Shown here one piece after another: positions 1,330 to 28,887 of a DNA stretch of 32,458 nucleotides. The stretch covers positions 1 to 32,458 of the IMG/VR virus record IMGVR_UViG_3300048592_001390; one strand, given 5' to 3'. This DNA comes from a virus. The position numbers and the translations under genes were made by a program. Within the stretch, counting starts at the first letter, position 1. Every line of letters starts with the position of its first letter. Under the pieces are notes generated by a model, which was given only the letters and a program-made list of their open reading frames with translations, was not told the DNA's origin and ran no database searches.

Positions 1330-3208
1330 GGCACTCGACGCCCAGTGTTTGCCAGACCTCGGGGAAGCCGGCTTCGATGCGCGTGGAGCGCACGATCCCG
1401 AGCCGCGCGACGCGGCCGTCCTGGTACTCGACGAACGTGCCCGGCTCCACGATGCCGGTCTCGGGCAGCACCGGCAGGCGCAGGCCCACTTCGAACTGCT
1501 GGCCGGTGTCGGCCAGGATCGCCGTACCACGCTGGCGCGCCGCCACGGCTTCGGTGATCAGCGCATCGACGACCATCGGTGCGACTCGGTTGCCTGCCGT
1601 GCCAGTGCGCGTCACTTGGCCCAACACACCGGCACTCTGGCCAGACACGAACACCCGGTTGTAGGCCGGCTTCTCCAGCCAGTGCAGCGATTCGCGCGAG
1701 ACCGCGTCGACGGGAAGAATCAGATCAGGTGTGACGGCATGCCAGTCCCACGGCGCTACCGGGTAGCGATGACGCACGCGCATCGTCGCATCGGATGGAT
1801 GCGGCAACAGGTAGCCACCGGCAGCACCAGCAATGGCGGCCAGCGCATCGATCCAGGTGCCTTGCTGAGTGAACACGCCTGCCGGCACGTTCCAGTCGGT
1901 CAGGCCCCAGTCGATGGCCCAGCCGAGTGGCACGCCGTTGATCGTCAGCACATCGTCCATCAGCTGCCGCGCGGTACGCGGGTCGGCATTGGCGAAGTTC
2001 ACGACGGGGGCATAAGGCGCCGACAGGACCGCGGAACGGCCCCGGCCGGAGAGTCGCAGGCTGGTGTCGCCGAAGCTGCGCTCGCGACTCAGGTTTTCGG
2101 CGAGCACGCGGAAGTTGGTGCCGTTGACGTGCGCCACCAGTTCCACCGGCGAGGCGCCATCTTCGGGCGCGACCAGCGTTTCGGCGATCCCGGGCAAAGT
2201 GGCCTCGAAGCCCCATGCCCAGGAATCAACGTCGAGACTCAGCGATAGCGAGATCACCGGCACCTGCGCCCCGTCTGGCCATCGATGCAAGGTCACGTGG
2301 TTCAGCACGACGTAAACCCTCCGAACCGGAACGACGACAGGAGCATCCTGGCCAGGCCCGGGATGGTTCTCGCACACGAAGACCAGGTGGCCATCCGTGG
2401 CCGCCAGCGCTGCGAAGCGCAGGTTGGGATTCGGGGTGTAGCAACGGATGGGCGGCGGATCGCCGTCGTCGGGACGCGTCGAATGCCGGCCAGGCGGTGG
2501 ACGCATGGCGTTCTGCCAGCGGGCCTTCGTCCAGCGCCGAAGCGCGACCGCGATCTGGATCGCCTCGAAGAAGCGTCGACTCGGAAGCGGTGCCGCGACG
2601 CCAAAGCGCGAGGTCGTCGGCCGATGGCGATCCCGCAGACCGTCTTGATGGTGCAGACGCCGCTGCAGGCCATCCATGCGCACCGCGTTGGCATGGACGA
2701 ACAGTCCTGCTGTGCGCAGTTGCAGCGCATCACTGTGCGCGACGCCGATGGCGCCCGGCGATGTCGGCGACGCGATGTTGAACCGCACCGTGGCTGTGAT
2801 CGGCAGTCGCGCCAACCTGGCCCTGCGACGCGCCTCGACACCCGCAACGTGACCTGTCGCCGGTTGCCAGCCGGTTTGCGCTTGCACGGGCGCCTGCTGA
2901 GTCGACGACGTTCGAAGCTCGGCACCGTGCTCGAACCCGCGACCGCGCTGCAAGGTCGAGTAGGTGCTGCCCACCAGCGGACGCGCGGTCCGCGAGGCAT
3001 AGCGCGCCTCGACCAGCATCTCCATCGCCGGGAAGGTGCCGACGAGTGTGGCCGATGCATTGGGGATGGCGAGCGCTTCGAAGCGCAATGCCGGCAGTGC
3101 GCCGACGAGTTGCGCATCGACGGGTGGCGGCGCCCCGGCCAGATCGCCGCCCAGCACCAGATGCACGCTGCCCGGGGGATGGGCGAAGCGCAGATCGACA
3201 GCCGTCAT
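1322..3208 (-). CDS. Large tail-tip/hub protein (628 aa)
   Basis: This is a distal tail protein, probably the baseplate hub or central tail protein. The C-terminal half, roughly residues 280-628, carries the recognisable part: VPVRRVYVVLNHVTLHRW, SLSLSLDVDSWAWGFEATLPG, a stretch resembling gp27-like hub domains (RTARQLMDDVLTINGVPLGW...WNVPAGVFTQQGTWIDALAAIA), and a final beta domain ending in VECHA. The N-terminal half is low in conservation and repeats short R/W/A-rich segments (about residues 65-240), as seen in other phage proteins of this type that I recall. ATG start at 3208. It follows the 129-aa gene after 6 bases and overlaps the 73-aa gene by 8. Function is inferred from domain pattern and from its place between tape measure and lysis genes. 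Confidence 0.8.
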   Translation of the reverse strand: MTAVDLRFAHPPGSVHLVLGGDLAGAPPPVDAQLVGALPALRFEALAIPNASATLVGTFPAMEMLVEARYASRTARPLVGSTYSTLQRGRGFEHGAELRTSSTQQAPVQAQTGWQPATGHVAGVEARRRARLARLPITATVRFNIASPTSPGAIGVAHSDALQLRTAGLFVHANAVRMDGLQRRLHHQDGLRDRHRPTTSRFGVAAPLPSRRFFEAIQIAVALRRWTKARWQNAMRPPPGRHSTRPDDGDPPPIRCYTPNPNLRFAALAATDGHLVFVCENHPGPGQDAPVVVPVRRVYVVLNHVTLHRWPDGAQVPVISLSLSLDVDSWAWGFEATLPGIAETLVAPEDGASPVELVAHVNGTNFRVLAENLSRERSFGDTSLRLSGRGRSAVLSAPYAPVVNFANADPRTARQLMDDVLTINGVPLGWAIDWGLTDWNVPAGVFTQQGTWIDALAAIAGAAGGYLLPHPSDATMRVRHRYPVAPWDWHAVTPDLILPVDAVSRESLHWLEKPAYNRVFVSGQSAGVLGQVTRTGTAGNRVAPMVVDALITEAVAARQRGTAILADTGQQFEVGLRLPVLPETGIVEPGTFVEYQDGRVARLGIVRSTRIEAGFPEVWQTLGVECHA

Positions 3209-22203: not shown

Positions 22204-24162
22204 TTACGACAGCCATCGGCTTTTGACGACGCGCCGCCGGATGGGCGCGCCCGGGTGGGCCTGGCCACCGCGTGGGGTGGCCGGGTCGTGGATCGGTAGT
22301 GCGAGGGCAGGTTCGGGCGCGCGTTCGACGCCGAGAGAGCGTTCCAGCTCGCGCCAGTGGCGTTCCTCAAAGCGGTCGAGGCCTGCGGCGGCCGCCGCGG
22401 CGCGGGCGTAGATGTAGCAATCGAGCGCTTCGTTGCGCTCGCGCACCTTCTGCCACTCACGTACCGGAAACCCATTGCGGTCGCGGCGCGTGATCAGCTG
22501 CTCGGCGCACAACTGCTGCACGAACTCCGCATCGATCTGCGGCAGGTGCACGAAGCCAGACGGGAACGTCAGGCTCACATCGTCGTCGCCGACCGTCGCG
22601 CTCTTGCGCAGGTTGTTGTAAAGCTCGAGCTTGGCAATCCCGACCGCCACGGAGAACACCTTGATGCCGCGGCGAAGGCGCTTGCCGTCGCGCGAGACAT
22701 CGACCGCAGTCGGCGTGCCGATCAGGGCTGCGCCGCGTGCCGCGCCCTTGACGGCCATCACGCGCGCATCGCGGCAGGCACGCACGAAGGCATAGGCCTC
22801 CTGCGTGGCGAAACCGGTGTCGAGCGCGAAGCGCACCAGCGGCATCAGCGCACCGGAGGCGTGGGTCCAGTGCTCATCAAGCAGGGCTGAGAGCGCCCGC
22901 CACACGCCCTCGCGTGCGGTGTCGCCCATCAGCACTCGGTGCTCGACCAGCCAGGACTCCTTGCCGCGGCCGAAGGCCCAGATCGAGACTTCGATGCGGT
23001 CCTTCTGCACGTCCGCGCCGCCGACCAGCAGCAGGCCACCGAGCGGTACGGTGCCGACGCGATAGTCCTCTCGGCGCTCGACCAGGCGCTGCCAGTCCGG
23101 GGCCTCACCTTCTTCGACCCAGGTCTCGCCGAGCTCGGTGTTCTTGAAGGTCTTGATTGCCGAGGCCGATCCGGACTCCTTGTTGACCGCGGCCTCCCAG
23201 GCTGCGGCGATATCGCGCCAGGCTCGCCAGCCCACCGGGCTGTAGAGCGAGGACAAGTGGAAGCCTGCGGTCTTGCCGACGACCTCTACGGTCGCGCGCC
23301 ACTCGCCGTGTTCGAGCATCCAGGTCTTGTGGTGCTCGGCAATCGCGGTGTCGCAGGCCTCGCAGATGTAGGCGGCCGTCTCCGGCGCGCCCTTGTCCCA
23401 GCGCAGCTGCTCGAAGCGTAACCATTGCCGGTGCGCGCAATGTGGGCACGGCAGGAAGTACCGACGCTGGTCGCTGGCCTCGTACTCGCGCTCGATGGCC
23501 GAGGCGCCGGCAATCGTCGGCGTCGAGACGATGAAGATCTTGCGGCGCGCAAAGGTGCGCGTGCGCGCCTCGGCGAGCGAGATCGCATCGCCTTCGCCCT
23601 CGACGTCGAGCGGGTAGCCATCGACCTCGTCCAGAAACAGGTAGCGCACCGGCATCGAGCGCAGACCGACCGCGCTGTTCGCGCCGGTCATGACCAGCAC
23701 GCCGCCGCGGAACTCCTTGGCCAGAATCGTGTTGCCCGAATCACGCGAGCGCGCCGGCGCGATCAGTTCCGCGAGGACGCCTGACTCCTCGATCAGCGGG
23801 TCGATGCGCTGCTTGGAGTTACGCTTGGCCATCTCAACGGTCGGCCAGACCGCCATCATCGGACCGGGCGCGTGGTGGATCACGTAACCGATCCAGTTCG
23901 AGCCCATCTCGGTGGCGCCGAGCTGCGCCGCCTTCATAAACACCACGCGCTCGACCGGCGAGGTCGGCGACAGGCAGTCCATGATGGCTTTGAGATACGG
24001 CGTGCGGCTGGTCCGCCAGCGCCCGGGCTCGGCCGAGGCCTTGCTCGACAGCATCCGGTGCCGATCCGACCACTCCGAGACGGTCAGTAGCGGGTCGGGG
24101 AGCAAGCCCTCGCGCCAGGCGCGTTCGAGCTCGGCGGCGCCCTCGTAGATCGTGTCGATCAT
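22204..24162 (-). CDS. terL: Terminase large subunit, GpA family (652 aa)
   Basis: This is the packaging motor: ATPase plus DNA-cutting nuclease, acting at the portal. Residues 77-87 (KAAQLGATEMG) form the Walker A-like loop, 174-181 (YLFLDEVD) the Walker B, and 213-219 (STPTIAG) the coupling motif. CPHC at 239-242 and CEAC at 267-270 form the zinc ribbon of this family. GGADVQKDRIEV at 381-392 starts the RNase-H-like nuclease with its first acidic residue. 652 residues compares with 641 in lambda gpA. The ATG at 24162 overlaps the TerS stop by 4 bases. GpA-family terminases usually belong to cos phages; no cos site could be recognised here. Confidence 0.95.
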   Translation of the reverse strand: MIDTIYEGAAELERAWREGLLPDPLLTVSEWSDRHRMLSSKASAEPGRWRTSRTPYLKAIMDCLSPTSPVERVVFMKAAQLGATEMGSNWIGYVIHHAPGPMMAVWPTVEMAKRNSKQRIDPLIEESGVLAELIAPARSRDSGNTILAKEFRGGVLVMTGANSAVGLRSMPVRYLFLDEVDGYPLDVEGEGDAISLAEARTRTFARRKIFIVSTPTIAGASAIEREYEASDQRRYFLPCPHCAHRQWLRFEQLRWDKGAPETAAYICEACDTAIAEHHKTWMLEHGEWRATVEVVGKTAGFHLSSLYSPVGWRAWRDIAAAWEAAVNKESGSASAIKTFKNTELGETWVEEGEAPDWQRLVERREDYRVGTVPLGGLLLVGGADVQKDRIEVSIWAFGRGKESWLVEHRVLMGDTAREGVWRALSALLDEHWTHASGALMPLVRFALDTGFATQEAYAFVRACRDARVMAVKGAARGAALIGTPTAVDVSRDGKRLRRGIKVFSVAVGIAKLELYNNLRKSATVGDDDVSLTFPSGFVHLPQIDAEFVQQLCAEQLITRRDRNGFPVREWQKVRERNEALDCYIYARAAAAAAGLDRFEERHWRELERSLGVERAPEPALALPIHDPATPRGGQAHPGAPIRRRVVKSRWLS

Positions 24163-24695
24163 TCGATGCGCGGGCGCAACTCGCCCAGCTCCTGCAGGTG
24201 TTCGCGCACAGCCGCCTCCAGGGCGACGTGCAAGGTGTGCGGATCAACGCCGAGGCGTGCGGCCATCTGCGCCGAAATGCGCGCGGGCCAGTTCAACCAG
24301 GCATCGCGCTCGGTGCGCGCCAGCTTGAATACATGCGCGATGGCCTGGTTGCGGTCGACCAGTTCGCCCTTGAGGCGGGCGAGGCGCACCTTGTTGGTCT
24401 GTGCCTTGACCACCTCGTTGACCGTGCGCGCTTGCAACAGGGACGCGCCGCCCGCCGGGAGCGCGGAACCCGCATCGCCTGCGGGGGAAACGTCGGCCGG
24501 AACGGGCGCCCGCGGCGCCGGCGTGCGCGAGCCCACGCGCGGGGCCTCGGTGTTGCGCGACCACTGGGCATCGGCCTGCGTCGGGTCCAGCGTGCCGTCG
24601 GCGTTGGGCGTGATGCGGCCTGCAGCAATGGCTTTGCGCACGGCGGCATCCGATACGCCCCGGTGCCGCGCGTAGGCGCGAATCGACAGTCCCAT
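24159..24695 (-). CDS. terS: Terminase small subunit (178 aa)
   Basis: This is the DNA-recognition subunit of the packaging enzyme. The N-terminus is a helix-turn-helix of Nu1 type (LSIRAYARHRGVSDAAVRKA IAAGRI). After a Pro/Ala linker come ARTVNEVVKAQTNKVRLARL KGELVDRNQA, a helix seen in Nu1-like proteins that contacts the large subunit, and a C-terminal region WLNWPARISAQMAARLG. ATG at 24695 with AAGGG close upstream. It is the last minus-strand gene before the oppositely oriented small-gene island, so it may have its own promoter in the 97-base gap. Confidence 0.9.
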   Translation of the reverse strand: MGLSIRAYARHRGVSDAAVRKAIAAGRITPNADGTLDPTQADAQWSRNTEAPRVGSRTPAPRAPVPADVSPAGDAGSALPAGGASLLQARTVNEVVKAQTNKVRLARLKGELVDRNQAIAHVFKLARTERDAWLNWPARISAQMAARLGVDPHTLHVALEAAVREHLQELGELRPRIE

Positions 24696-24792
24696 CGGCC
24701 CTTTTCAATCAAGTCGAACAAACGACGAAAAGCGCTTGGCTTCACCTCCGCACAGCGCGTTCATCGCCGTCCCCGATCACGAGGACGAGCCG
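24696..24792 (+). promoter_or_regulatory. Divergent gap between TerS and first island gene
   Basis: These 97 bases separate two genes transcribed away from each other, so any promoters for the packaging operon (minus) and the island (plus) could lie here. The stretch 24704-24732 is relatively AT-rich for the window. Repeat copy 1 occupies 24733-24765. I could not assign convincing -35/-10 boxes or a cos site. Confidence 0.4.
24733..24765 (+). repeat. 33-nt cargo element, copy 1
   Basis: Matches CGCTTGGCTTC-N6-GAACAGCGCGTTCATG with GCAC in place of GAAC and C as last base, the most diverged 3' half of the set. It lies 27 bases before ATG 24793, which has GAGG as ribosome binding site. The downstream gene is the one that appears broken. 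Confidence 0.85.
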
Positions 24793-25064
24793 ATGAACCT
24801 CTCGAACATGGACACGCTGGCGAAAGCACTGGCCAACGCCGCGATGACGGTGTTGGTGCGCTCCTGCCGCGAGGAAGTTGCTGGCGCCAGCCACGCGCGC
24901 CTGGACGAGGCCTGGCCGCGATGCGCGCCAAGGCGCGCCCGGTGCTCGACCAACTGCTCGACGAAGCCCGTTCGGCGCCCTGGGTGGCCGAGGCGGCCTT
25001 CGCCGCTGCGGCCCTGGAACTGGCGCAGACCGGCATCGCCGCGCTGAAGGCCTCTGAAGCCTGA
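24793..25064 (+). pseudogene. Small island gene 1, apparently frameshifted
   Basis: The ATG at 24793 (GAGG 8 bases upstream) begins MNLSNMDTLAKALANAAMTV LVRSCREEVAGASHARLDEA in frame 1, after which that frame turns into low-quality Arg/Pro/Ser-rich sequence up to a stop at 25047. From about 24909 the frame one base back becomes protein-like: GLAAMRAKARPVLDQLLDEA RSAPWVAEAAFAAAALELAQ TGIAALKASEA, stopping at 25064. The two parts join sensibly as one helical protein of about 90 residues if one base is dropped. It may be a frameshift mutation, a sequencing error, a programmed -1 shift, or two genes, the second starting at ATG 24921 (47 aa, GAGG 10 bases upstream). I do not recognise the family. 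Confidence 0.5.
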
Positions 25065-25080
25065 ATTTGCTGGCGAACAA

Positions 25081-25113
25081 CGCTTGGCTTCAGTGCGGAA
25101 CAGCGTGTTCATG
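25081..25113 (+). repeat. 33-nt cargo element, copy 2
   Basis: CGCTTGGCTTC-N6-GAACAGCGTGTTCATG, one mismatch to the consensus. It lies 42 bases before ATG 25156. The end of the upstream gene contains CTGAAGCC (25054-25061), a perfect inverted repeat of GGCTTCAG (25086-25093) inside this copy. Confidence 0.9.
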
Positions 25114-25155
25114 TGTCCCGCAACGAGCACATCCACACCATCACGGAGCACCACC

Positions 25156-25407
25156 ATGAGCACGACAGCCGCCAAGCGCCAGGAGATCGTCGACGAACTC
25201 GGCGAGATCCAATCTCAGATCCTGGACCTGGTCGAGCAGGCGCGCGCGCTATTGCGCCGCAACGGACTACAGGGGGCGATGATGCGTGCCGAGTCCTACT
25301 GGATCGCGCATGTCATCACCGCAGTGAGCAACGACCACGGCTACCTCGGCGGATCGATGGTCAGCCTGCAGAACACCATCGACGAGATCAAGAACGACGA
25401 CGACTGA
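25156..25407 (+). CDS. Small island gene 2, helical protein of unknown function (83 aa)
   Basis: This 83-residue protein begins MSTTAAKRQEIVDELGEIQS and continues QILDLVEQARALLRRNGLQG, AMMRAESYWIAHVITAVSND and ends QNTIDEIKNDDD. It is likely all-helical, soluble and acidic at the C-terminus. The start is ATG 25156 with GGAG 7 bases upstream, 42 bases after repeat copy 2. The frame is open further upstream through the repeat, but repeats elsewhere in the island stand in other frames, so the upstream part is not counted as coding. No known family or function recognised; the setting suggests phage or mobile-element cargo. Confidence 0.8.
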   Translation: MSTTAAKRQEIVDELGEIQSQILDLVEQARALLRRNGLQGAMMRAESYWIAHVITAVSNDHGYLGGSMVSLQNTIDEIKNDDD

Positions 25408-25414
25408 GCGCAGC

Positions 25415-25438
25415 GCCGGGTGGGTCATCCCGCCCGGC
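25415..25438 (+). terminator. Strong GC hairpin after island gene 2
   Basis: Arms 25415-25424 and 25429-25438 pair over 10 positions (one G-U pair) around the tetraloop TCAT. It starts 7 bases after the stop codon. There is no T run after it, so it may protect the 3' end of the message or act with Rho rather than be a classical intrinsic terminator. Confidence 0.5.
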
Positions 25439-25454
25439 CAGCCCCGCCGATGTC

Positions 25455-25487
25455 GCTTGGCTTCACCAACGAACAGCGCGTTCATCA
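25455..25487 (+). repeat. 33-nt cargo element, copy 3
   Basis: CGCTTGGCTTC-N6-GAACAGCGCGTTCATC, differing from the consensus only in the last base. It lies 33 bases before ATG 25521. Unlike copies 2, 4 and 5 it has no complementary arm just upstream; the GC hairpin at 25415-25438 precedes it. Confidence 0.9.
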
Positions 25488-25520
25488 CGCGCACATCCAC
25501 ATCAAACCAGGAGCAACACC

Positions 25521-26126
25521 ATGAGCACGATCCAACTGACCTCGACCCAGCACTTCATCCTGGATACCGCCATCAAGCACACCGAGGGGCGCATCGAACA
25601 ATTCCCCGACAACGTCAAAGGCGGCGCGCGATCCAAGGTACTCGATGGCCTCTTCAATCGCGCGCTGATCACGCCCGATGGCGAGGGCTGGCGCGTGGCC
25701 GCCGAGGGCTACGACGCGCTGAACTACCCGCGCCCGGGCATCAACCCGAAGCGCATGTCGGCCTTCGAGGCCAAGCTCGACCAGGTCATCGCCAACGCCG
25801 AGGCGGCGGCGCAGGCCACACCAGACGCCACAACGGACGCCGTGGACGACGTTGCGATGGAAGACGCGGTTGCCAGCGCCGAGGCGAGCTTCGCGGCGAA
25901 CGATGCGCCCCGCGCGCCACGCACCCGCCAGAACAGCAAGCAGGCGGAAGTCCTGCGGATGCTGCGTCGGCCCGAGGGCGCGACGATCAGCCAGATCTGC
26001 GAGAGCACCGGCTGGCAGGCGCACACGGTCCGCGGGACCTTCGCCGGGGCCTTCAAGAAGAAGCTAGGCCTGGTGCTGACCTCCGAGAAAGCGACGGGCG
26101 CGGAACGGGTGTACCGGGTCGCTTGA
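25521..26126 (+). CDS. DUF3489-like winged-helix protein (201 aa)
   Basis: Residues about 137-200 (SKQAEVLRMLRRPEGATISQ ICESTGWQAHTVRGTFAGAF KKKLGLVLTSEKATGAERVY) match the DUF3489 domain, a small helix-turn-helix/winged-helix unit frequent on proteobacterial mobile elements. Residues about 5-70 (STQHFILDTAIKHTEGRIEQ, ARSKVLDGLFNRALITPDG) look like another winged helix. The two are joined by an Ala/Asp-rich, probably flexible linker at about 90-135. DNA binding is inferred from fold; no target is known. ATG 25521 has AGGAG 8 bases upstream and repeat copy 3 before it. It is the largest gene of the island. Confidence 0.88.
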   Translation: MSTIQLTSTQHFILDTAIKHTEGRIEQFPDNVKGGARSKVLDGLFNRALITPDGEGWRVAAEGYDALNYPRPGINPKRMSAFEAKLDQVIANAEAAAQATPDATTDAVDDVAMEDAVASAEASFAANDAPRAPRTRQNSKQAEVLRMLRRPEGATISQICESTGWQAHTVRGTFAGAFKKKLGLVLTSEKATGAERVYRVA

Positions 26127-26151
26127 ACATGATCGAGAAGCCAGGCGGAAA

Positions 26152-26184
26152 CGCTTGGCTTCTCGTTCGAACAGCGCGTTCATG
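26152..26184 (+). repeat. 33-nt cargo element, copy 4
   Basis: Perfect match to CGCTTGGCTTC-N6-GAACAGCGCGTTCATG. It lies 31 bases before ATG 26216. CGAGAAGCCA (26134-26143), just after the previous stop, is a perfect 10-base inverted repeat of TGGCTTCTCG (26156-26165) in this copy, with a 12-base loop. Confidence 0.92.
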
Positions 26185-26215
26185 GGGTCGTTGCCACACG
26201 ACCCGGAGACCTCCC

Positions 26216-26422
26216 ATGAGCACCAATGACCTCTTCACCCGCATCGCCCAGACGCATCTCCACATTGAGACCCTGGAGACGCGCCACCGCGACAGCCTGG
26301 ACTTCCACGACGTGGGCGTCTGGTGCGTGCGCGACGCCCTGCAGGCCGCCTTTGAGGCGGGCGTTGCGGAAGGCCTCCGCCAGGCGGGTCGGATGAAGAA
26401 GGTGGGCAAAGCCAAGCAGTAA
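26216..26422 (+). CDS. DUF6900-like small protein (68 aa)
   Basis: This 68-residue protein begins MSTNDLFTRIAQTHLHIETL ETRHRDSLDFHDVGVWCVRD ALQAAFEAG and ends in a basic tail KKVGKAKQ. The 'LETLETRH.DSLDFHDV.VW...ALQAA..AG' pattern is what I know as DUF6900, a short family of unknown function common on plasmids, integrative elements and phages of Proteobacteria; assignment from memory. ATG 26216 has GGAG 7-8 bases upstream. The last codons (AAAGCCAAGCAG) pair with the next repeat copy, so gene end and element 5 are physically linked. Confidence 0.82.
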   Translation: MSTNDLFTRIAQTHLHIETLETRHRDSLDFHDVGVWCVRDALQAAFEAGVAEGLRQAGRMKKVGKAKQ

Positions 26423-26423
26423 T

Positions 26424-26456
26424 TGCTTGGCTTCCGTCGCGAACAGCGCGTTCATG
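26424..26456 (+). repeat. 33-nt cargo element, copy 5
   Basis: TGCTTGGCTTC-N6-GAACAGCGCGTTCATG, one change in the first base, which still allows a U-G pair with AGCG. It lies 29 bases before ATG 26486. AAGCCAAGCA in the end of the previous gene is a perfect 10-base inverted repeat of TGCTTGGCTT here, separated by only 5 bases that include the stop codon. Confidence 0.92.
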
Positions 26457-26485
26457 CATCCACACCCAACAACACCGAGATCCCC

Positions 26486-26794
26486 ATGATCGAGAGCATC
26501 AAAGTCCGCTTCGCCCGCAAGCCCAGCGATCTGGCCGACGTCCTGGCCAGCCTGCGTTACGGCGACCTTGCGAACTACGTCGACATCGAGTCGCGCCAGG
26601 CCATGACCGAGGCCGAGTACGACGCGTTCACCGGCGCATTGCTGGCCGACCGCGATTGGCTCGCGGGGCGCGGCGGATTTCTGGAGGGCGGCGGGCGCAG
26701 CGTCGTCGAAGTCACCGCGCCCAATCGCACCACGCTCTACGTTGATCCGTCCGGATCGAGCTACGGACGCTACGTGGGAATCCGCGCCGATTGA
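26486..26794 (+). CDS. Small island gene 5, unknown function (102 aa)
   Basis: This 102-residue protein begins MIESIKVRFARKPSDLADVL and has LRYGDLANYVDIESRQAMTE AEYDAFTGALLADRDWLAG, a Gly-rich turn (GRGGFLEGGGRS) and a final beta part (VVEVTAPNRTTLYVDPSGSS YGRYVGI). It looks like a compact soluble alpha/beta protein without membrane segment. The ribosome binding site is weak (CGAGAT before ATG 26486). Small proteins like this recur on plasmids and integrative elements, but I cannot name a family or function. Confidence 0.8.
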   Translation: MIESIKVRFARKPSDLADVLASLRYGDLANYVDIESRQAMTEAEYDAFTGALLADRDWLAGRGGFLEGGGRSVVEVTAPNRTTLYVDPSGSSYGRYVGIRAD

Positions 26795-26803
26795 CTCGGC
26801 GCG
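26783..26803 (+). terminator. GC hairpin spanning the stop of island gene 5
   Basis: CGCGCCGA (26783-26790) and TCGGCGCG (26796-26803) are perfect 8-base inverted repeats around a 5-base loop that holds most of the TGA stop. No T run follows. It is a likely 3'-end stem of the message rather than a classical terminator. Confidence 0.45.
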
Positions 26804-26830
26804 AGAAAGATCGAAGATCGTTCGCAAGAA

Positions 26831-26863
26831 CGCTTGGCTTTGGGGTGGAACAGCGCGTTCATG
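26831..26863 (+). repeat. 33-nt cargo element, copy 6
   Basis: CGCTTGGCTTT-N6-GAACAGCGCGTTCATG, one mismatch (T for C at position 11). It lies 32 bases before ATG 26896. Directly upstream, CGTTC (26819-26823) and GAACG (26828-26832) form a small hairpin with a GCAA tetraloop that overlaps the first two bases of this copy. Confidence 0.9.
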
Positions 26864-26895
26864 GACGCGTCGCCACCCACACCACGGAGTCCTCC

Positions 26896-27267
26896 ATGAG
26901 CCAGACCACCGACATGATCCCCGCCACCCGCAACCAAGGATGGGGCTTCCACGGCACCATGAACGAGCACGCCGAGGCCGCCTGGCCGCTGGCAATGACC
27001 GAAGTCGCCAACGCCACCGGCGAGTCCCTCGAAACGGTCCGGGTTTTCCTCGACAGCCGATTCGGCCGCCACTTCGCGGACGACGTCCTCAACGCCGTTG
27101 AGGAAGGCACGACCCTGGCGGGCGCCATTGAGGCGGCCACGCGCAGGTGGATGGGATGGACGATTGGCCGCCAGACCAGCAAGGACTACGGCATCCCGCG
27201 CGGGTTGCCTTACCTGACTGGCTTTGTGGTCCATTGCGCGATCCTGGACGAAGATCTCGCCGCTTGA
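26896..27267 (+). CDS. Small island gene 6, mobile-element-type protein (123 aa)
   Basis: This 123-residue protein carries GWGFHGTMNEHAEAAWPLAM TEVANATGESLETVRVFLDS RFGRHFADDV, then AGAIEAATRRWMGWTIGRQT and GIPRGLPYLTGFVVHC. The 'AAW..A...VA..TG.....VR.FLDSR.GRHFADDV' and 'RWMGW.IGR' strings recur in proteins I remember from plasmids and integrative elements, always of unknown function. It is soluble, with no catalytic motif visible. ATG 26896 has GGAG 7 bases upstream. Confidence 0.82.
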   Translation: MSQTTDMIPATRNQGWGFHGTMNEHAEAAWPLAMTEVANATGESLETVRVFLDSRFGRHFADDVLNAVEEGTTLAGAIEAATRRWMGWTIGRQTSKDYGIPRGLPYLTGFVVHCAILDEDLAA

Positions 27268-27288
27268 GGGAGCGCAGTCGCGCCTCCC
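27268..27288 (+). terminator. GC hairpin just after island gene 6
   Basis: GGGAGCGC (27268-27275) pairs with GCG-C-CTCCC (27280-27288) with one bulged C and an AGTC loop, starting right after the TGA. It is followed by AATAAAA, not a T run. Probably a 3'-end stem of the message; terminator function is uncertain. Confidence 0.4.
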
Positions 27289-27294
27289 AATAAA

Positions 27295-27327
27295 AGCTTG
27301 GCTTCGGGTAGGAACAGCGCGTTCATG
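27295..27327 (+). repeat. 33-nt cargo element, copy 7
   Basis: AGCTTGGCTTC-N6-GAACAGCGCGTTCATG, one change in the first base. It lies 27 bases before ATG 27355. It is the last copy; no further copy was seen on either strand of the window. Confidence 0.9.
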
Positions 27328-27354: not shown

Positions 27355-27618
27355 ATGCAAGCACGCACCACCGATGAACTCGCCGACGGCCTGCACGCCT
27401 ACCTGACCGGCTACGGCAACCGCGAGCCAGGCAAACTCGACGTCCTGATTGCCTACGATCGCTGGCGCGAAATCGCGCGCGCTGAGCTCGAGCGACGCGC
27501 CCAGGAAGTGATCGGTCGCCTCGATGTCGATACGCTGCAGGCCATCGCCCGCGGGGATTTACAGGTCGAACGCATTGCCCAGCGAGTGCGCAGCGAGCTG
27601 ACTGGCGCGGAGTCATAG
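27355..27618 (+). CDS. Small island gene 7, unknown function (87 aa)
   Basis: This 87-residue helical protein begins MQARTTDELADGLHAYLTGY and continues LIAYDRWREIARAELERRAQ EVIGRLDVDTLQAIARGDLQ and VERIAQRVRSEL. It is Arg/Glu-rich and soluble, with possible coiled coil in the middle. ATG 27355 has GGAG 8 bases upstream and element copy 7 before that; an in-frame TTG further up would extend through the element and is not preferred. It ends 27 bases from the oppositely oriented methyltransferase stop, so the island and the methyltransferase operon converge here. Function unknown. Confidence 0.8.
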   Translation: MQARTTDELADGLHAYLTGYGNREPGKLDVLIAYDRWREIARAELERRAQEVIGRLDVDTLQAIARGDLQVERIAQRVRSELTGAES

Positions 27619-27645: not shown

Positions 27646-28887
27646 TCAGACCGACGCCGCCTCCGCGCCTGCCTCAACACGCGTCGCGGTCCTCCCCGTG
27701 AACGCCTCCCAGCGGCGCACGATCACATCGGCGTACTTCGGGTCCAATTCCATCAGGCGCGCGACGCGCCCGGACTTCTCGGCGGCAATCAGCGTGGTGC
27801 CGGAGCCGCCAAATGGATCGAGCACCACAGCGCGCGGCCGCGAACTGTTGCGCAGCGCGCGCTCGACCAGTTCGACCGGCTTCATGGTCGGGTGCAGATC
27901 GTTCTTCTGCGGCTTCTTGATCTGCCAGACGTCGCTCTGGTCGCGGTCCCCGCACCAGTGGCGCTCGGCGCCCTCGGGCCAGCCGTAGAGGATGGGCTCG
28001 TACTGGCGCTGGTAGTCGGCACGGCCGAGCGTGAAGGTGTGCTTGGCCCAGATGATGAACGTCGACCAGTGGCCGCCAGCGGCACGGAAGGCGGCCTGCA
28101 GCGCATCCAGCTCGCTCGACGACATCGCGACGTAGATCGCGCCATCGCAGCGCGCGAGCATCGGCGTCAGCGCAGCCAGCAGGAAGTCGTAGAACCCGTC
28201 ACCCAAGTTGTCGTTGAGGATCGCGCGGTCCTTGCCACGCAGCTTGTCCTTGGCGCTGTTGGCGTAGTTCACGTTGTACGGCGGATCGGTGAAGACCATG
28301 GCCACGCGCTCGTCGCCGAGCAGCGCGTCGTAGCTCGCCGCCAGGGTCGCGTCGCCGCACAGCAGGCGATGCGGGCCCATGTGCCAAATGTCGCCGGCGC
28401 GGGACACCGGCGCATCGGACACCTCCGGGACGGCATCCTCATCGGTCTGCCCGGACACCTCTGGCTCGTCGCCAGCCATCAGTTCTGCGAGCGCGTCGGC
28501 GTCGAAGCCGGTGATGTCGAGGTCGAAGCCAGCGTCCTGCAGATCAGCGAGTTCGACCCGCAGGAGATCCTCATCCCAGGTCGCGTTCTCGGCGATGCGG
28601 TTGTCGGCCAGCACCAGCGCGCGGCGCTGCGTCGGCGTCAGATGGTCCAGCACCACGACCGGCACCGTGATGAGCCCAAGTTTCTGGGCCGCGGCCAGGC
28701 GTCCGTGCCCGGCGACGATCACGCCGTCGCTGCCCGCAAGGATCGGGTTGGTGAAACCGAACTCCGCGATGCTGGCGGCGATCTGCGCCACCTGTGCGTC
28801 CGAGTGCTGGCGGGCATTGCGGGCGTAGGGGATGAGCTTGGCGGTCGGCCACGGCTCGATCTTTTCGGCGAGCCAGGAGCGCGTCAT
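27646..28887 (-). CDS. ParB-domain DNA methyltransferase, DPPY type (413 aa)
   Basis: This is a fusion of a ParB/Srx-like N-terminal domain (residues about 15-100, with VIVAGHGRLAAAQKLG) and an S-adenosylmethionine-dependent DNA methylase. DPPYNVNY at 201-208 is catalytic motif IV of adenine-N6 type enzymes, HPTMKPVEL at 332-340 and LDPFGGSGTT at 356-365 are typical of the beta group, where the target motif comes before the AdoMet-binding motif. Such fusions are common next to phage terminase genes; they may protect phage DNA against host restriction or mark it for packaging (inference). ATG 28887 overlaps the stop of the upstream methyltransferase (ATGA). Confidence 0.93.
   Translation of the reverse strand: MTRSWLAEKIEPWPTAKLIPYARNARQHSDAQVAQIAASIAEFGFTNPILAGSDGVIVAGHGRLAAAQKLGLITVPVVVLDHLTPTQRRALVLADNRIAENATWDEDLLRVELADLQDAGFDLDITGFDADALAELMAGDEPEVSGQTDEDAVPEVSDAPVSRAGDIWHMGPHRLLCGDATLAASYDALLGDERVAMVFTDPPYNVNYANSAKDKLRGKDRAILNDNLGDGFYDFLLAALTPMLARCDGAIYVAMSSSELDALQAAFRAAGGHWSTFIIWAKHTFTLGRADYQRQYEPILYGWPEGAERHWCGDRDQSDVWQIKKPQKNDLHPTMKPVELVERALRNSSRPRAVVLDPFGGSGTTLIAAEKSGRVARLMELDPKYADVIVRRWEAFTGRTATRVEAGAEAASV

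What the first reader, a model, noticed from the sequence alone, without database searches (positions are those of the whole stretch)
24733..27327. Seven copies of a 33-nt element, one in front of every gene of a small-gene island
CGCTTGGCTTC-N6-GAACAGCGCGTTCATG occurs at 24733, 25081, 25455, 26152, 26424, 26831 and 27295, each 27-42 bases before an ATG. The N6 varies freely while its length and both flanks are fixed. The element stands in different frames relative to the genes downstream, so it is not a shared N-terminus. As RNA it can fold two exclusive ways: CGCU/AGCG plus UUC/GAA closing the N6 loop, or GAAC/GUUC around AGCGC. After it comes a G-poor CA-rich leader, usually with GGAG. It could be a cis-regulatory RNA, a binding site for one regulator of all cargo genes, or a recombination site that shuffles gene modules. 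From memory, the setting (leaders of mobile-element genes in Proteobacteria) recalls the radC RNA motif.
Basis: partly seen in the sequence, partly recalled or inferred. Interest (0 to 1): 0.8.

Follow-up and report, generated by a model that had tools for sequence, protein, structure and literature searches.

The report
Mobile promoter-like repeat before phage genes
A 31-base DNA signal, repeated in front of every small gene of a phage island and found in front of many other phage and mobile-element genes in several bacterial groups, looks like a portable, unusual promoter that puts integration and cargo genes under one control.

Summary
The seven copies are real; none is expected by chance. 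The element reaches far beyond the window: 597 sites with at most 6 mismatches (duplicates included), none in a reversed control, in 236 loci. Its geometry is rigid: TTGGCT and GTTCAT/GTTACT lie 17 bp apart in 565 of 569 pairs; a start codon follows after 33-37 bases in 430 of 574 copies. Behind it stand 49 protein clusters and DUF2924-serine-recombinase operons: 25 of 27 such loci, drawn without regard to the element, have a site. The island runs against the late genes; in 125 of 137 measured loci its first copy starts 27-65 bp from the divergent terminase gene, leaving little room for another promoter. Neither RNA fold covaries; no relevant Rfam match. Best reading (0.6): a mobile, non-canonical promoter or activator site of a phage accessory regulon. 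Modules are also gained or lost at it: two relatives carry a hybrid of window copies 1 and 2. Transcription and the recognising factor are unproven. Closest known kind: ESAS/SAS of cluster K mycobacteriophages.

The parts
24733..24765 (+). element copy 1, before gene 1; 38 bp from the divergent terminase small subunit start at 24695
25081..25113 (+). element copy 2
25454..25486 (+). element copy 3, before the DUF3489 gene
26152..26184 (+). element copy 4 (no mismatch to the quoted 33-mer), before the DUF6900 gene
26424..26456 (+). element copy 5
26831..26863 (+). element copy 6
27295..27327 (+). element copy 7
24793..25047 (+). gene 1 (family E, phrog_36268, unknown); reading frame departs from homologues about one third in (by eye)
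25156..25407 (+). gene 2 (family J, unknown)
25521..26126 (+). gene 3, DUF3489 protein (201 aa), winged-helix-like, possible DNA-binding protein
26216..26422 (+). gene 4, DUF6900
26486..26794 (+). gene 5 (family D, phrog_21303, weak)
26896..27267 (+). gene 6 (family C, phrog_8020, unknown)
27355..27618 (+). gene 7 (family U)
24159..24695 (-). terminase small subunit, divergent from the island
27646..28887 (-). ParB-like / DNA methyltransferase gene, convergent with the island

Best explanation
The element is a mobile, non-canonical promoter (or the DNA site at which one dedicated activator plus RNA polymerase starts transcription). It serves a phage accessory and integration regulon. Its left block (CTTGGCT) sits in the -35 position and its right block (AGCGCGTTCAT) in the -10 and upstream-of-10 position, with a fixed 17-bp spacer that contains the variable N6. 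A pyrimidine-purine step lies at the expected start point seven bases after the right block. From there a G-poor, CA-rich leader of about 28-30 bases with an AGGAG site leads to the ATG. In the window each small gene has its own copy, so element plus gene behaves as a plug-in cassette. The same site heads the DUF2924-serine-recombinase operon and single accessory genes, so integration and cargo genes share one control and, where I could see it, run opposite to the lytic genes. Shown: repetition, rigid spacing, position, strand layout, breadth, association with recombinase operons, modular gain and loss. Inferred: transcription start, -35/-10 assignment, a dedicated recognition factor, timing (lysogeny or its establishment rather than late lysis).
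For: (2) Layout: 137 of the 141 loci with a terminase small subunit could be measured, and in 125 of the 137 the first divergent element starts 27-65 bp from that start codon (many loci are relatives). A consensus sigma-70 scan finds no other promoter in the window island, 0 found against 0.3 in shuffles. (3) Position: median 35 bases from element end to start codon, 430 of 574 at 33-37, ATG in 563 of 574. (4) Pyrimidine at position 36 in 98% and purine at 37 in 86% of 443 distinct leaders. (5) Diverged forms: of the 25 sites found before DUF2924 genes 24 keep TTG and 20 end in GTTCAT or GTGAAT while the rest changes, for example TTGATA or TTGCTA at -35; similar forms. (6) It heads the recombinase operon in AcaML1, where the four copies found lie opposite to the replication, terminase and structural genes. 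(7) Neither RNA fold covaries. (8) A one-base error in my spacing took the hits from 59 to 8 of 250 genomes.
Against: The -10 hexamer GTTCAT lacks the A at the second position that sigma-70-type promoters need, and no sigma factor that I can recall reads this motif. No Sigma70_r2 protein was found in 20 of 20 phage records, some of them fragments. The conserved information is more than a simple promoter needs. No transcript data were available. The tight distance to the ATG would also suit a translational element. High pyrimidine-purine frequencies also occur elsewhere (0.83 at 28/29 inside the element, 0.74 at 39/40), and the leaders are partly homologous. Not each such gene has its own copy: 14 of 30 DUF3489 genes have none directly in front, 7 of 20 DUF6900 genes none. 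7 of 25 element-bearing genomes lack DUF3489 and 5 of 25 lack DUF2924, so no single linked factor was identified. The ungapped scans cannot show spacer changes in diverged forms.
Confidence: 0.6

Rival explanations
1. It is an operator or stoperator: an asymmetric site for a phage immunity repressor that silences cargo and integrase genes in the prophage, with the promoter elsewhere or overlapping.
For: Many asymmetric, same-strand copies in short gaps between genes (164 of 166 multi-copy loci on one strand) resemble L5-type stoperators, which are read by a monomer with two DNA-binding domains and vary most in the middle (PMC9283540, passages seen). The DUF3489 protein is modelled as two confident parts, winged-helix-like, joined by a poorly predicted stretch.
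Against: The distance to start codons is fixed, which stoperators do not need. Copies stand in front of cargo and recombinase genes and on the strand opposite to the lytic genes, where a lytic repressor would not be expected to act. No repressor was identified.
Confidence: 0.17
2. It is a recombination site, used by the DUF2924-linked serine recombinase or by homologous recombination, that shuffles gene modules.
For: L168 and L237 carry one hybrid element: left flank like window copy 1, right half and leader like window copy 2, gene 1 absent. Island breakpoints lie within 50 bp of an element centre in 52.7% against 15.6% for random places. The element stands just upstream of recombinase operons.
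Against: A recombination site needs no fixed distance to the ATG. In AcaML1 the element of the recombinase operon lies at 3045 of the record; the attachment repeats reported for AcaML1 are 10-base direct repeats with attB in srrA (PMC3826726, table passage), and nothing there ties them to this element. The breakpoint figure is inflated because alignments extend through any conserved element, and the pairs are not independent.
Confidence: 0.12
3. It is a cis-acting RNA or translation element in the leader, read by a protein or small RNA.
For: Tight spacing to the start codon and a CA-rich leader with AGGAG. 56 of 271 copies have an upstream inverted repeat of the left block, against 13 in shuffles.
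Against: No covariation in either fold. Variants GTTACT and GTGAAT break the GAAC/GTTC stem. No relevant Rfam match. The spacer does not vary in length. The upstream inverted repeat is absent from most copies.
Confidence: 0.1

Closest known systems
SAS and ESAS of cluster K mycobacteriophages (PMC3203893, PMC12699233, PMC11373665; passages read)
   Same: Repeated, asymmetric (SAS), mostly one-orientation sites in front of many unrelated small phage genes. ESAS are 46-47 bp, contain putative SigA-like -35/-10 hexamers 17-18 bp apart plus an inverted repeat.
   Different: No sequence relation seen by eye. ESAS has SigA-like hexamers and 17-bp inverted repeats, which are not present here. SAS lies 3-9 bp from the start codon and ours about 35. 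Ours occurs in loci of many proteobacterial and some other genomes and also heads recombinase operons.
Stoperators of cluster A mycobacteriophages (PMC9283540, passages)
   Same: Multiple asymmetric sites, many in short intergenic gaps, oriented with transcription; middle of the site variable.
   Different: 13 bp rather than 31, a known repressor; a fixed distance to start codons is not part of their description in those passages.
17-bp dyad repeats of cluster O mycobacteriophages (PMC4351075, passages)
   Same: Many copies; deletions by recombination between copies were inferred there.
   Different: Symmetric, about one third inside genes, not closely tied to starts.
Lambda CII-activated promoters pRE, pI, paQ (recalled, no call)
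   Same: Activator-dependent promoters that coordinate integrase and lysogeny genes against the lytic direction.
   Different: TTGC-N6-TTGC direct repeats are absent here, and lambda has few sites per genome.

Membership tests
   0 matches of 4227 families in the window; six chance-like matches at E 0.55-8.2 in the island, none of them at the elements' family scores; in 15 related loci only an unrelated ALIL pseudoknot. That radC RNA is among the families is recalled.
cis-regulatory RNA | compensatory changes in the proposed stems | tested here: not met
   79 sequences: pairing 59.2% against 59.7% shuffled, and 71.8% against 70.7% (29 of 500 shuffles reach it); covariation scores within shuffles
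sigma-70 promoter | TTG of a -35 box and a 16-18 bp spacer | tested here: met
   17-bp spacer in 565 of 569 pairs. TTG in 24 of 25 sites before DUF2924 genes; in the main set TTG was part of the search pattern, so its invariance there is no test
sigma-70 promoter | TATAAT-like -10 with A at position 2 and T at position 6 | tested here: not met
   T at position 6 in 448 of 450, but T, not A, at position 2 in 445 of 450 (set found with patterns that end in GTTCAT); 0 sites in the consensus scan
promoter in general | transcription start at the element | not testable with these tools
   no transcript data
ESAS | 17-bp imperfect inverted repeats and SigA-like hexamers | tested here: not met
   element asymmetric; upstream inverted repeat of the left block in only 56 of 271 copies; no sigma-70 consensus site
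SAS | GGGATAGGAGCCC within 3-9 bp of the start codon | tested here: not met
   distance median 35, different sequence
stoperator | bound by the phage repressor, stops elongation | not testable with these tools
   binding not testable
site-specific recombination site | exchange at a fixed point between sites | tested here: inconclusive
   one hybrid element in two relatives does not separate site-specific from homologous exchange
shared protein N-terminus | element in frame with all genes | tested here: not met
   TTG of the element is in frame with the ATG in 3 of 7 window genes (read)

The most novel reading that the evidence does not exclude
A promoter class of its own, with a fixed 17-bp bipartite architecture and a GTTCAT -10 that is not sigma-70-like, read by a still unknown phage or mobile-element factor (candidates encoded inside the regulon: the DUF3489 protein or the RAMA-like DUF2924 protein). 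It has spread over phages and mobile elements of several bacterial groups as a plug-in module that enrols any gene placed behind it, including integrases and a DUF499 gene, into one regulon.
Probability: 0.35. Interest if true: 0.8.

Novelty: new variant of a known kind. Interest (0 to 1): 0.62.

Why it matters
Temperate phages carry many accessory genes whose control is mostly unknown. A single recognisable signal that marks dozens of unknown small gene families, recombinase operons and at least one defence-like gene would let one collect phage cargo from sequence alone. It would also make a concrete question testable: which factor reads it and when. If it is a promoter that ordinary sigma-70 does not read, it points to an undescribed regulator. 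The cassette behaviour also gives a simple route by which phages could gain genes that are expressed at once.

Tried and rejected
Shared N-terminus or leader peptide: the element is in frame with the gene in only 3 of 7 window genes. Sigma-54 and sigma-32 readings: the spacing or the -10 does not fit (by eye, consensus recalled). Gram-positive LexA-like GAAC-N4-GTTC (recalled): spacing here is 5, and variants break it. Phage sigma factor: no Sigma70_r2 in 20 of 20 phage records. DUF3489 as the obligatory factor: 7 of 25 element-bearing genomes lack it. DUF2924 as the obligatory factor: 5 of 25 lack it. Upstream hairpin as a general part: only 56 of 271 copies against 13 in shuffles, with a weak N6 pairing excess (2.74 against 2.38 of 6 pairs in 61 copies). 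Fold search of DUF3489 gave only weak winged-helix matches, none with E at or below 0.001.

Literature. Searches: sequence strings (20 of 129 papers listed), DUF3489 (20), AcaML1 (37), SAS (38), repeated promoters (42, 94: no paper), DUF2924 (61), stoperators (93), ZoeJ/ESAS (99), and a mixed query with serine recombinase and Burkholderiales (101). In these listings I saw no paper that describes this element; that is not proof of absence, and only open-licence papers are held. Seen as passages only: PMC4520260, PMC3203893, PMC5567305, PMC3826726, PMC4351075, PMC9283540, PMC12699233, PMC11373665. The AcaML1 genome paper itself was not seen.
Full report
WHAT IS IN THE WINDOW. The window is a 32,458-base viral record. 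Structural genes (tape measure, major tail and head proteins, head maturation protease, terminase) and a RuvC-like resolvase and a primase lie on the minus strand. Between the terminase small subunit and a ParB/DNA-methyltransferase gene lies an island of seven small genes on the plus strand. Each has one copy of the element in front; there are seven copies in all and none expected by chance. The genes are mostly of unknown function. Named domains are DUF3489 (gene 3) and DUF6900 (gene 4).

HOW WIDE IT IS. Record titles include Burkholderiales, Rhodocyclaceae, Lysobacterales, Pseudomonas, Nitrospira and Geobacter, many of them MAGs. Five of five of these genomes searched whole (Caldimonas, Pseudomonas indica, Nitrospira defluvii, a Geobacter MAG, a Burkholderiaceae MAG) carry 4-12 sites. 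In the loci plus the window, 597 sites have at most 6 of 25 fixed positions changed; a reversed control has none up to 6 and 3 at 7. Overlapping and repeated stretches are included; without identical copies 450 remain in 201 loci. In 250 genomes of one order (that of the Caldimonas genome G021), 59 have a match with up to 2 mismatches, some of them plainly chance at 2, against 2 genomes with a match in the control. In the phage collection a blastn search with a composite element found only AcaML1 of Acidithiobacillus, in three records.

GEOMETRY. TTGGCT to GTTCAT/GTTACT is 17 bp in 565 of 569. By accident I also searched with a spacing one base short: 8 of 250 genomes matched, against 5 in the control. 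From the end of the element to the start codon there are 33-37 bases in 430 of 574 copies, ATG in 563 of 574, and an AGGAG match of at least 4 of 5 in 532 of 574. The start was chosen by a score that favours ATG, AGGAG and a long frame, so these counts lean towards such starts; 19 further copies had only a frame under 30 aa and 4 none. The leader is G- and T-poor. In 164 of 166 loci with more than one copy all lie on one strand.

RNA OR DNA. In 269 deduplicated copies the pairs of both proposed folds occur about as often as expected from independent columns. In a gap-free alignment of 79 copies, chosen for divergence and including DUF2924 sites and the window, the GAAC/GTTC stem pairs in 59.2% of cells against 59.7% when shuffled, and the CGCT/AGCG plus TTC/GAA fold in 71.8% against 70.7% (29 of 500 shuffles reach it); covariation scores lie within shuffles. 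Rfam gives nothing relevant. An upstream inverted repeat of the left block exists in 56 of 271 copies against 13 in shuffles: real but optional and unexplained.

WHY A PROMOTER. Of 141 loci with the terminase small subunit, 137 could be measured, and in 125 of these the first divergent element starts 27-65 bp from the terminase start codon (many of these phages are relatives). The first gene therefore has little room for another promoter unless transcription comes antisense through the terminase gene. The window island holds no sigma-70 consensus site. The blocks sit where -35 and -10 would. Of the 25 sites before DUF2924 genes, 24 keep TTG and 20 end in GTTCAT or GTGAAT while other bases change; similar forms are seen. 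A pyrimidine-purine step is found at positions 36/37 in 85% of 443 leaders, but also in 83% at 28/29 and 74% at 39/40. Against the promoter stands the -10 sequence itself, which lacks the A at the second position; I therefore propose a non-standard or activator-dependent promoter and leave the factor open.

THE REGULON. In AcaML1 four copies were found, all on the minus strand; positions 29,568-44,999 were not scanned. Three are in the small-gene island and one, at 3045, is in front of gp4 and the recombinase gene gp3. The start of gp4 reads like that of the L251 protein, which is DUF2924 by Pfam. The replication, methylase, terminase and structural genes shown lie on the plus strand. In 250 genomes 34 have a DUF2924 match. 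I examined 27 loci (one for each of 27 genomes, taken without regard to the element; three loci with short partial domains were left out): 25 have a site with 2-9 changes at the expected place; L334 and L342 do not. In random 160-bp stretches the best site has 10 or more changes in 491 of 499 draws. Of three further second copies one has a clear site (L349), one a partial one (L348) and one none (L350). In another class search 4 of 114 genomes had DUF2924. In one of them (G275) 7 of 8 stretches have a site with 3-8 changes and one has none; of the other three genomes one has a site with 8 changes (L295) and two none. For DUF3489, 16 of 30 loci have a copy with 0-6 changes directly before the gene itself. 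Counting copies 300-800 bp before the domain, which often head the preceding gene, 21 of 30 have one with 0-7 changes and three more a diverged but recognisable one, L351, L367, L378. For DUF6900 it is 13 of 20, seven without. In 25 genomes chosen because they carry the element, 18 have DUF3489 and 20 DUF2924. Single copies also head a small gene of unknown function beside what look like restriction genes (by eye) and a DUF499 gene.

CASSETTES. The 574 proteins behind the element fall into 49 clusters, 21 of them single proteins, in 71 different orders, many from fragments. The N6, the GTTACT variant and the leader are partly typical of the gene family, so the element travels with the gene behind it. 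Compared with the window, L168 and L237 lack gene 1 and have one element whose left flank matches window copy 1 and whose right half and leader match window copy 2: a recombination between elements, in one direction or the other. L084 has an extra gene without its own element before element 6 and lacks gene 7. Breakpoints cluster at elements (52.7% of 3360 within 50 bp against 15.6% random), but that number is inflated because any conserved element extends an alignment and the pairs are not independent.

FACTOR. Unknown. No sigma factor domain in 20 phage records. DUF3489 is modelled with two confident parts and a poorly predicted middle (mean pLDDT 81, pTM 0.38) and has weak winged-helix matches. 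A two-domain monomer that reads an asymmetric site is known for L5-type repressors (PMC9283540, passages), so DUF3489 is a fair candidate, but not obligatory. DUF2924 has a RAMA match below the family's cut-off.

COMPARISON. The nearest known kind is the SAS/ESAS system of cluster K mycobacteriophages: repeated start-associated sites, ESAS with hexamers 17-18 bp apart (passages). Ours shares the logic, not the sequence or the inverted repeats. I therefore file it as a new variant of a known kind. If the recognition factor proves to be new, the novelty would rise.

Noticed in passing
24793-25047: Gene 1 leaves the reading frame of its homologues about one third in (by eye), so the window copy may be broken or misassembled.
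   Followed up: no
L245 about 7294 / JX507079 22274: In AcaML1 an element with one change lies inside the annotated terminase small subunit gene, on the other strand; the annotated starts of some neighbouring small genes also ignore their elements, so the annotation there is probably off.
   Followed up: partly
L130, L220, L255: The element stands in front of long frames; the one in L130 has a DUF499 domain (Pfam), and those in L220 and L255 look alike by eye. I recall DUF499 as part of candidate anti-phage systems.
   Followed up: partly
L021, L046, L088, L094, L106, L156, L183, L213, L234: A 96-98-aa protein family (MSNRF... or similar) with an element in front, often next to prophage ends or restriction-like genes by eye; the one member tested has no Pfam match.
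   Followed up: partly
26409-26433 and upstream of many elements in other loci: Optional inverted repeat AAGCCAAGC...GCTTGGCTT that includes the end of the preceding gene; in some loci it extends into the N6.
   Followed up: partly
L247 3302 and 4153: A DUF3489 island on an alphaproteobacterial plasmid with the same terminase/methylase layout has a different 78-base repeat in front of two of its genes, perhaps a counterpart of the element.
   Followed up: no
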